A stretch of DNA of 64,000 nt from assembly GCA_964036295.1 (NCBI GenBank), contig OZ038471.1:6756001-6820000 (forward strand). Reading direction: 5' to 3'. The translations under genes and the position numbers were made by a program. Below the pieces are notes generated by a model. That model was not told the DNA's origin. It was given only the letters and a program-made list of their open reading frames with translations, and made no database searches. Source of the stretch: Plumapathes pennacea (taxonomy: Eukaryota > Cnidaria > Anthozoa > Antipatharia > Myriopathidae). This document shows, piece after piece, positions 10,585 through 22,654 of this stretch (its first letter is position 1; each line of letters opens with the position of its first letter).

Positions 10585-13500
10585 CTATGACCGAGCAACT
10601 GGTGACATACTTATCCCTCGAAATGGCTGTAAATCCATAGAATGGAGCCTTGCGTTTGGAGGCAGCCCTAAATTGTCTTTTGTAGCAGTTGTGCTGACTT
10701 TAGAAGGATGCGATGTCAAGCCTGTATCGCTTATTCTCGAGGAAATCGTTTGTCTTATTTGGTGGAATTTTGCCCTGATCTCGGTGCTTCGACAAGTATG
10801 AAAGGTGAAGATGAGAAAGCCCTGACGGATAAAGTGCCAGTGATACAAAATATGTCGACAAAAGATCAAATAAAGAAGAAAGGAATATAAGAATCAAAAT
10901 TATAATGCTTATGTATACACGATAAGTTAAAAAGCAGTACAGTTGATCAAATTTTGGCACTAAATGGTGGAGTAATCTAACCGATAAAGCTAGCCAACTG
11001 CTTGTTAACAATATATGATGTGACTTGTGCAACTAATAGCTTGCTTTGTAAGTTCCTTCTCCCATTCCTCGAAATTTGCATTACTCAGCTACATGAAATA
11101 AAGATTAGTATAATTAGATTTTAGAGTTTTAGGGTTTAGGTGTTTCGATACTTGGGGCTACTAAAATTAGATTTCTAGTATATAATAGTATTTAGGTTTA
11201 GAATTCGATGTATTACTAAAGTTAGGGTCAGTATAGATATATAAATTTACGTATATTTTTGAATAGACGCGCCAATGGCTGAAATAGCACAAACAAAAAG
11301 TAACGCAAATCCTTACCTGCGAAGCGTTGAGAATGGCAAAGATGTACTGGAAGACAAGGCCACCCGTTGTGGCAACCAAAAGTCCAAATATCCAGGGAAC
11401 TCCAAGAAGAGGGCAAAGGAATAAACTGGCCCTGGCAGCTCGTCTGTTGAAAAGCAGAAATTAAAGTTGATGATGTGGATGTAATAAAAATGGTGGGATG
11501 AAGATGATAGTGATGACAATGACGATAATGGTGGTGAAGGTGGAGGGAAGTATTCTTCGAGTTAGCATCTTCGAGTTACGGACTTCCAGTTAAAGGAATG
11601 TCGAGTTATGCAGTCTGCCACACCCACACACCCACCCACTGCTTTGGCGAGACATATTAAGCAACGAGAGCTGCTGCGAAACAAAAAGTTGTACTTGCAA
11701 GCCGTCAAATTTGACATTTCCTTTGTCGTTTGGTCCCTCGTGGGCTCTCAAGGCAATGTAAGAAAACGTAACACTGCAGTATTTTAATTGGGTTTGCACT
11801 TTAACACATTTTCCTGAAATGATTGTGTACATATAAACTCCACTATATTTTAAACATAATTCTCTCGCGGTTATTTCAGCAGTTCTTGTGGATTATGTCT
11901 CGTGAAAACAGCAGGCAATTTTTATCTGTCTGAAAGTAACTTACCTGTTAAATCTTGTTTATTCGACGATGGAGGCTTAACTCGAACAGTTAACAGAACA
12001 TAACATCTTCGAGTTAAGCCCTCGAAAAATAACTCGTACCGCGAACGAAATATTACCGTCTTCAAGTTACTATCAGACAAATACCTTGCGTGACCCAAGA
12101 TATGTGGGTGTGGCAGACTGCATAACTCGAAATTCCATTTACTCGAAGTCTGTAACTCGAAGATTATAACTCGAAGAATACCTCCCTCGTGAAGGTGGTG
12201 ATGCCAGACAGTGATGTGATAACGAACAAGACGATGGAGATCATGATTGTGATTATGACGATGGTGACGAAGACGGCAATGATGATGATGATGATGATGA
12301 TGATGACGAAGACGAAGACAAAGACGAAGACGAAGACGACGACGATGACGAAAACGACGATGGAGATTATGATTATGACGATGACGATGACGATGACGAT
12401 GACGATGACGACGATGATGATGATGATGGGATGATGATGACGACCATAATGATGGTGACGATGATGCTGATTACAACAATAAAGATGATGACGACGACGA
12501 TGTTGTGTTACCTTGAGTCATTAGGTATTTCATTGCCAACAGTTATTAGTCTTGTAATCGCACGCGCTACAAGGACAGTGATTACAATGTTTACCTAGTT
12601 AAAAAAAAAAAAAAAAAAAAAAAAAAGCATTGTAAGGTGCATCAAAGCTGGGATTATGCAACAATTTGATTTATCACACTCTGGCCCCTCTAGAAAAAAA
12701 AATGCTGGAACAAAGAACATGTCTAAGCCAATACTCGAGATTAGATAGCACAGTGAGAATGTATGTATGTATGCATGTATGTAACAAATGGCAAGCAAAT
12801 GTCTCATCAGCCTAGACTACCTTCTCAAATTGTTCACAAATTTTACTCTAGCGCTCAAAACTAAGTTGACACTACGTACAACAATGATAATGATGACGGG
12901 AACAACAAATGTCCAAATCAGGCCATTAGTGAAGGACACCCAGCAACTGAAAGACGAACGAAAAAATAAACAAATAAATAAGAAAAAAAAAAACGGAAAC
13001 GAAAACGGAAACGGAGACGGAAATGGAAATGGAAACGTTCCGCTAAGGCTGATAAAGTGCAAACGACGTATAAGCATCTGTGTCTTGTATTGTACGGAGG
13101 TAATATGTTGAGTGCATGGTCTCCTGATATTTCCGTTGCTTTGAAATCTCTATTGAATCTAAATAAAGCCAAACTCAAATGTTTTAAGCTCAGAGCCATT
13201 GGACTTGCTCTTTTCCTTTCAGTATAATTTTCTATTGCCTGAAGACGTTTTTATCATTAAATTGGCTGATTTGAATTGAATTCATATATTTTTCGTATTG
13301 TAGTGTACGTTACGCGAAAAAACGCGTCACGTATCCTCCCTCAGTGTCAGCCCCACCAGACGTTAGTTAATCTTTAACTGTGAAGGAGAGGAAAAATTTG
13401 AAAATTCTCTGGGGAAGCATGCCTCCGGCGCTCAAATAGTCCCTCTGTGCGTACAGTTACAAAATCGCACGCTACGCCCCTGACTGCTATTAGAATGTAC

Positions 13501-22654: not shown

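What the first reader, a model, noticed from the sequence alone, without database searches (positions are those of the whole stretch)
10585..22654. Adhesion GPCR that carries a von Willebrand A domain
Nineteen exons join without a phase error into signal peptide, VWA with intact MIDAS, GAIN, GPS and 7TM. I know of no vertebrate adhesion GPCR with a VWA ectodomain. A MIDAS VWA coupled to a GPS and tethered agonist would be a direct link between cation-dependent matrix or cell binding and G-protein signalling.
Basis: partly seen in the sequence, partly recalled or inferred. Interest (0 to 1): 0.8.

Follow-up and report, generated by a model that had tools for sequence, protein, structure and literature searches.

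The report
Adhesion GPCR array carrying VWA domains
The gene very probably encodes a cell-surface receptor that joins an integrin-like binding domain (VWA) to a seven-pass signalling receptor of the self-cleaving adhesion type, and it is one of a row of similar genes whose binding domains change faster than their signalling parts.

Summary
A 19-exon minus-strand model encodes VWA, a GPS and a 7TM domain of the adhesion/secretin class. A 22-nt exon at 23798-23777 gives a signal-peptide-like start (MKLFLSA|VLILAQIRSSA) and is identical in that paralogue, so the gene spans 10585-23798 and encodes 747 residues. One-gene status no longer rests on phase alone: the order recurs in a tandem array of seven units; unit 6 has all 19 exons with equal lengths, unit 5 is broken. 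MIDAS residues are kept in 8 of 8 VWA copies read (7 different). The GPS keeps H-M|T, but one of its four cysteines is Trp here and in unit 6, so cleavage is doubtful. The VWA is a phase 1-1 exon module, nearest to VWA exons on C4. VWA dN/dS exceeds that of the 7TM in 14 of 14 computable unit pairs, and is above 1 with support in one pair only. No paper found describes a VWA adhesion GPCR, but the library is partial. New variant of a known kind. No transcript, ligand or species name is available.

The parts
23777..23798 (-). exon 1 (corrected): start codon and first half of signal peptide MKLFLSA
   Evidence: donor score 8 of 9, phase 1; 22 of 22 nt identical in unit 6
22168..22200 (-). exon 2: second half of signal peptide VLILAQIRSSA
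   Evidence: GT-AG, same length in unit 6, 90.9% nt identity
21308..21732 (-). exon 3: VWA, first part, with DISKS, GTLTY and FTDG MIDAS residues; starts phase 1
   Evidence: Pfam VWA E 7e-27; alignment to integrin I domains
19892..20045 (-). exon 4: VWA, last part; phase 0 in, phase 1 out
19342..19364 (-). exon 5: linker (ELFACLIE)
   Evidence: same length and splice sites in unit 6, 87.0% nt identity
19135..19188 (-). exon 6: linker (EFRKNVTMMNISEPRSLE)
   Evidence: same length and splice sites in unit 6, 90.7% nt identity
18508..18652 (-). exon 7: start of the GAIN-like region
   Evidence: similar peptide at the same place in units 1-6; no Pfam GAIN hit
17607..17711 (-). exon 8: GAIN-like region
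   Evidence: units 1-6
17350..17413 (-). exon 9: GAIN-like region
   Evidence: unit 6 only
16888..16996 (-). exon 10: GAIN subdomain B
   Evidence: aligned with ADGRL3, E5 and others
16426..16478 (-). exon 11: GPS first half (CAFWKFPTE)
16127..16238 (-). exon 12: GPS second half (WACNHM|T, third Cys is Trp) and tethered-agonist-like TSFAILMQTDEIP
   Evidence: Pfam GPS E 5.5e-8; Cys present in units 1-5 and in the sister receptor
15638..15744 (-). exon 13: TM1
14877..14988 (-). exon 14: TM2
14084..14234 (-). exon 15: TM3 and start of TM4
13642..13726 (-). exon 16: TM4 and ECL2
12821..12946 (-). exon 17: ECL2 Cys and TM5
11317..11443 (-). exon 18: TM6 and TM7
10585..10821 (-). exon 19: end of TM7, cytoplasmic tail, stop
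   Evidence: 99.2% nt identity to unit 6
   Evidence: 2 nt shorter in unit 6, which breaks the frame

Best explanation
It is an adhesion-class GPCR gene with a VWA (I-like) ectodomain, one unit of a tandem array. Shown: gene structure in the DNA, MIDAS residues, GPS, 7TM, paralogues, faster VWA divergence. Inferred: the phase 1-1 VWA exon pair was shuffled in front of a GAIN-7TM gene from a gene like the VWA genes on C4 (possibly VWA/TSP1, coadhesin-like) and the fusion was then duplicated. Inferred: the VWA sits at the cell surface and uses its MIDAS metal to bind a protein ligand on matrix or another cell; ligand binding or pulling disturbs the GAIN region so that the TSFAILMQ strand acts as tethered agonist on the 7TM domain. 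In this gene the missing GPS cysteine suggests poor or no self-cleavage, so activation by exposure of the agonist without release of the N-terminus is more likely than shedding; units 1-5 have the canonical CxCNHL|T. Inferred: different units recognise different ligands while keeping one signalling part.
For: 19 exons, GT-AG, open frame. Unit 6: 19 of 19 exons with equal lengths and GT/AG at the same places, 747 aa, no inner stop. Units 1-4: 13 of 19 exon peptides found at E up to 0.01, in the same order in 4 of 4, and a conserved 29-nt linker exon ALINETCSTE that takes phase 1 to phase 0; their exon 7 has an open phase-0 acceptor in 4 of 4. The intron between exons 6 and 7 is 482 nt here and 481 nt in unit 6 and holds no AATAAA/ATTAAA, leaving little room for a gene end and a new start. 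MIDAS conserved in 8 of 8 VWA copies. Solved relatives: 7TM/GPS to ADGRD1 8x9s E 4e-56; VWA to 4cn8 E 1.6e-18 and integrin I domains. VWA tree: 8 array rows together at 100/99, grouped with C4 VWA rows at 92/88; same exon phases in the C4 gene looked at. VWA dN/dS exceeds that of the TM subset in 14 of 14 computable pairs of six units (the 15th pair, units 1 and 2, has identical VWAs).
Against: No transcript or protein evidence. GAIN subdomain A is not recognised by sequence. The third GPS Cys is Trp in units 6 and 7. Unit 5 is broken: another receptor lies between its exon 13 and later exons 14-16, 18 and 19, and its linker exon was not found. The single dN/dS supported above 1 is one of 28 pairs (Fisher p 0.003, uncorrected); Fisher on change counts, VWA against TM, is not significant for that pair (p 0.28), and in 7 of the 15 pairs in all, the close ones. 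The pairs are not independent. No ligand, G protein or expression site is known.
Confidence: 0.65

Rival explanations
1. Two neighbouring genes: a small secreted VWA protein (exons 1-6) followed by an adhesion GPCR without VWA (exons 7-19), duplicated together.
For: Paired duplication alone would also repeat the order in each unit. In this gene an in-frame ATG lies just before exon 7.
Against: Exon 6 ends open at a GT donor with no stop; the gap is 482 and 481 nt without AATAAA/ATTAAA; the ATG before exon 7 reads GTG in unit 6; units 1-4 use a different linker exon that also joins in phase. I saw no signal peptide before exon 7, by eye only.
Confidence: 0.1
2. The receptor is real but the VWA acts as an immune, symbiont or self/non-self recognition domain under diversifying selection rather than as an ordinary matrix adhesion domain.
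For: Tandem array; units 6/7 VWA 34 nonsynonymous against 2 synonymous changes, dN 0.082 above intron divergence of about 0.05; 14 of 29 residue changes fall in four loops that make up 48 of 191 residues; mosaic VWA variants, with the 7.44-Mb copy sharing residues now with unit 6, now with unit 7 (by eye).
Against: Other close pairs have dN/dS 0.5-1.2 and distant pairs about 0.5; the loops were chosen after seeing the sequences and from recalled topology; gene conversion could explain uneven divergence, since synonymous divergence also differs between VWA and TM in some pairs; no polymorphism data.
Confidence: 0.2
3. Unit 7 is a decaying copy that no longer signals or is no longer cleaved.
For: Trp in place of a GPS Cys in units 6 and 7; overall dN/dS for units 6/7 is 1.5.
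Against: 747 codons without an inner stop in both; 7TM dN/dS 0.44 and tail 0.31, though on few changes (12 and 2); a 561-nt TM subset gives 0.98 on 4 changes.
Confidence: 0.12

Closest known systems
ADGRD1 (GPR133) and other human adhesion GPCRs
   Same: GPS, tethered-agonist-like strand and 7TM; best solved match 8x9s, E 4e-56, residues 357-713 of the 754-aa model
   Different: ADGRD1 carries a pentraxin-like domain, not VWA (recalled); here the third GPS Cys is Trp, and the recognisable GAIN part is short
Integrin alpha I domains and collagen VI / PTMP1 VWA domains
   Same: VWA by sequence; the five MIDAS positions align with integrin alpha-1
   Different: those sit in integrins, collagens or matrix proteins, not on a GPCR
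Coadhesin-like VWA/TSP1 proteins (here VWA exons on C4, 11.9-12.2 Mb)
   Same: closest VWA exons outside C10 in the scored list (up to 61% identity); same phase 1, 0, 1 exon pattern in the one gene inspected
   Different: no 7tm_2 match nearby in the capped list. A TSP1 exon lies among these VWA exons, but I did not model which gene it belongs to. The coadhesin label is recalled; papers on it were seen only as a listing and one passage
Amphioxus, sponge and choanoflagellate adhesion GPCRs with unusual ectodomains (PMC2246102, PMC4302439, PMC12716839)
   Same: lineage-specific gain of ectodomains on a GAIN/7TM core
   Different: domains named in the passages read (e.g. kringle, somatomedin B, SRCR) do not include VWA; zero hits for Willebrand in the main text of all three. 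Figures and supplements were not seen

Membership tests
Adhesion GPCR (class B2) | 7tm_2 domain related to adhesion receptors | tested here: met
   PF00002 E 2e-37; best solved match ADGRD1
Adhesion GPCR (class B2) | GPS next to TM1 | tested here: met
   PF01825 33.6 bits against cut-off 22.5
Adhesion GPCR (class B2) | two highly conserved disulfides near CxCxHL|T (PMC13197933, passage) | tested here: not met
   WACNHM|T in units 6 and 7; CxCNHL|T in units 1-5 and the sister receptor. A departure of this copy and its closest paralogue, in a feature that is usual rather than strictly defining
Adhesion GPCR (class B2) | full GAIN domain, subdomains A and B | tested here: inconclusive
   B/GPS part aligns with solved GAIN domains; first ~95 residues mostly unmatched
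Adhesion GPCR (class B2) | self-cleavage and tethered-agonist activation | not testable with these tools
   sequence TSFAILMQTDEIP only
MIDAS VWA domain | DxSxS, T and D metal positions | tested here: met
   8 of 8 VWA copies, 7 different; alignment with integrin alpha-1
MIDAS VWA domain | binds a divalent cation and a ligand through it | not testable with these tools
   needs protein
Known human adhesion GPCR subfamilies (A-G, L, V) | ectodomain set of that subfamily | tested here: inconclusive
   only VWA and GPS were found in the ectodomain, but no human set was searched. That no human member has VWA is recalled, with zero hits for VWA or Willebrand in the held 300,000 of 412,533 characters of PMC13197933

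The most novel reading that the evidence does not exclude
The array is a recognition locus: tandem adhesion GPCRs whose VWA domains are diversified at their metal-bearing face by selection and exchange between copies while the signalling part is kept uniform, so that self, partner or microbe recognition is read out directly as G-protein signalling. The 7.44-Mb place, where a 90% identical VWA stands before a receptor of a different 7TM group, would be an exchange of this kind; that the two are spliced together there was not shown.
Probability: 0.2. Interest if true: 0.85.

Novelty: new variant of a known kind. Interest (0 to 1): 0.55.

Why it matters
If expressed as modelled, it puts an integrin-type, metal-dependent binding domain directly on a receptor with a tethered-agonist-like strand, a combination not seen in the papers I could search, and gives a natural set of similar signalling parts with different binding heads. 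That makes it possible to ask which part of an adhesion GPCR sets ligand choice, and whether a receptor that has lost a GPS cysteine still signals. The uneven evolution makes the locus a candidate for recognition of self, partners or microbes.

Tried and rejected
Exon 1 at 22654-22612: rejected, (its donor also falls below the score cut-off of 6 that I used, so that scan could not have listed it). Read-through ORF of exon 2 as a start (LPLYFLFIAVLILAQIRSS): no start codon between the stop and exon 2. Second copy of the exon 4 end at 19675-19620: looks like a duplicated fragment, not used. Diversifying selection as a general property of the array: not supported, 1 of 28 VWA pairs only. Other VWA-7TM pairs in the genome: I compared by eye the lists (150, 149 and 150 rows, each capped); outside C10 only C1:4.717/4.730 Mb is close, with the VWA downstream of the 7TM, so not the same order. 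The VWA tree took C6, C1, C4 and C10 rows only; VWAs on C7 (52% identity), C2 and C5 were not included. Two papers that I recall as relevant are not held.

Full report
What is there. The minus strand of 10585-23798 encodes a 19-exon gene model. Pfam finds VWA, GPS and 7tm_2 above their cut-offs. PDB searches place the 7TM/GPS half with ADGRD1, L3, E5 and other adhesion receptors (128 distinct sequences matched, 60 shown) and the VWA half with PTMP1, collagen VI and integrin I domains (49 sequences).

Correction of the first exon. A scan of 4 kb upstream for ATG-to-GT exons of phase 1 with a donor score of at least 6 of 9 gave seven candidates here and ten in unit 6. The donor at 23777 is shared by both and scores 8; from the last ATG before it comes MKLFLSA|VLILAQIRSSA, which I read as a signal peptide (no program was run). 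Longer readings from ATGs further upstream in the same frame exist in both units. With the short exon the product is 747 aa in both units.

One gene or two. The tblastn of the exon peptides over C10:6616001-6820000 shows seven units in a row on the same strand. Unit 6 has all 19 exons with the same lengths. Units 1-4 each show 13 exon peptides at E up to 0.01, in the same order; exons 2, 5, 6, 9 and 11 were not found by this search, and the exon 1 peptide in it was the rejected one, so the corrected exon 1 was not looked for in units 1-5. In place of exons 5 and 6, units 1-4 share a 29-nt linker exon (ALINETCSTE) that leads from phase 1 to phase 0, and their exon 7 has an open phase-0 acceptor. 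Unit 5 is disrupted: another receptor lies between its exon 13 and later exons 14-16, 18 and 19, and no linker exon was found there. The exon 6 to 7 intron is 482 nt here and 481 nt in unit 6 and lacks AATAAA/ATTAAA in both. Two genes duplicated together would need a gene end and a new start in that space. One gene is much the simpler reading, but no transcript was available.

GPS. Units 1-5 read CxCNHLT and a related receptor at C10:6.94 Mb reads CTCNHLT. Units 6 and 7 read WACNHMT. The 2026 adhesion GPCR review says that two highly conserved disulfides anchor near CxCxHL|T (PMC13197933, passage), so one is probably lost here. From memory, loss of a GPS cysteine in GPR56 blocks cleavage and surface delivery; I did not look this up. 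I therefore do not claim that this copy is cleaved.

Origin of the VWA. The VWA is encoded by a phase 1-1 pair of exons with an inner phase 0 intron. The closest VWA exons outside C10 in the scored list are on C4 (48-61% identity in the top 28 rows), and the C4 gene inspected has the same phases. A TSP1 repeat lies among the C4 VWA exons (Pfam TSP_1 E 2.6e-13), but its gene was not modelled. In a tree of 29 rows (22 different) the eight array VWAs join at 100/99 and group with seven C4 rows (five places) at 92/88; an eighth C4 row falls outside, long branches are flagged, and C7, C2 and C5 VWAs were not included. Related 7TM exons at C10:16.0, 6.94 and 4.65 Mb and C7:4.65 Mb have no VWA match nearby in the capped list. 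Exon shuffling into one ancestor of the array is the likely origin, by inference.

Uneven evolution. Between units 6 and 7, NG86 gives dN/dS 0.68 for the signal peptide, 5.6 for the VWA (34 nonsynonymous, 2 synonymous), 1.0 for the linker, 1.8 for exons 7-9, 0.79 for exons 10-12, 0.44 for exons 13-18, 0.31 for the tail and 1.5 overall, with introns 94.8% identical. Across 28 VWA pairs (one identical) only this one is significantly above 1 (p 0.003 before correction); other close pairs lie at 0.5-1.2 and distant pairs near 0.5. In all 14 pairs of six units where it can be computed the VWA ratio exceeds that of a 561-nt 7TM subset; Fisher on change counts is below 0.05 in 8 of 15 pairs, all of them distant ones. 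Unit 5 and the 7.44-Mb copy were not in that comparison. Fourteen of 29 changed residues lie in 48 of 191 positions that I took, after seeing the alignment and from recalled topology, as MIDAS-side loops (p 0.004, exploratory). The VWA evolves faster than the 7TM; positive selection is suggested for one pair, not shown for the array.

Literature. I read section 11 of PMC12716839 in full and passages of it, PMC2246102, PMC4302439, PMC13197933, PMC12960093 and PMC12549020; none mentions one there. Figures and supplements were not seen. Two papers that I recall on cnidarian and early animal GPCRs are not held, so an earlier report cannot be excluded.

Verdict. Very probably a real VWA adhesion GPCR, part of a tandem array, with a corrected first exon, a GPS that lacks one cysteine and a fast-changing binding domain. 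It works, most likely, as a metal-dependent adhesion sensor coupled to a tethered agonist; every step after the domain structure is inferred.

Noticed in passing
G000:C10:6621692-6755409 (lower coordinates than the window, same contig): Six further VWA-7TM units in a row; units 1 and 2 have identical VWA exons; unit 5 is split by another adhesion GPCR.
   Followed up: partly
L044-L045, C10:7436321-7446355: A VWA exon 90% identical to this gene's stands before an adhesion GPCR of a different 7TM group; gag-like ORFs lie just upstream (judged by eye).
   Followed up: partly
window 19675-19620: A second copy of the end of exon 4 (PTKVQDKVYGT) within intron 4, probably a duplicated fragment.
   Followed up: no
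window 39623-42439 +: A 938-aa open frame; the 691 residues searched hold a RanBP-type zinc ribbon just under the Pfam cut-off (25.5 against 27 bits).
   Followed up: partly
window 55082-58475 -: Long tandem array coding TPDYHSRLPLPI-like repeats in several frames, probably a minisatellite (by eye).
   Followed up: no
window 63007-63546 -: 179-aa open frame resembling the end of a retrotransposon reverse transcriptase ORF (recalled resemblance).
   Followed up: no
L046-L048, C4:12022001-12050000: VWA exons with a TSP1 exon among them; the C4 11.9-12.2 Mb stretch has more than a dozen VWA matches.
   Followed up: partly
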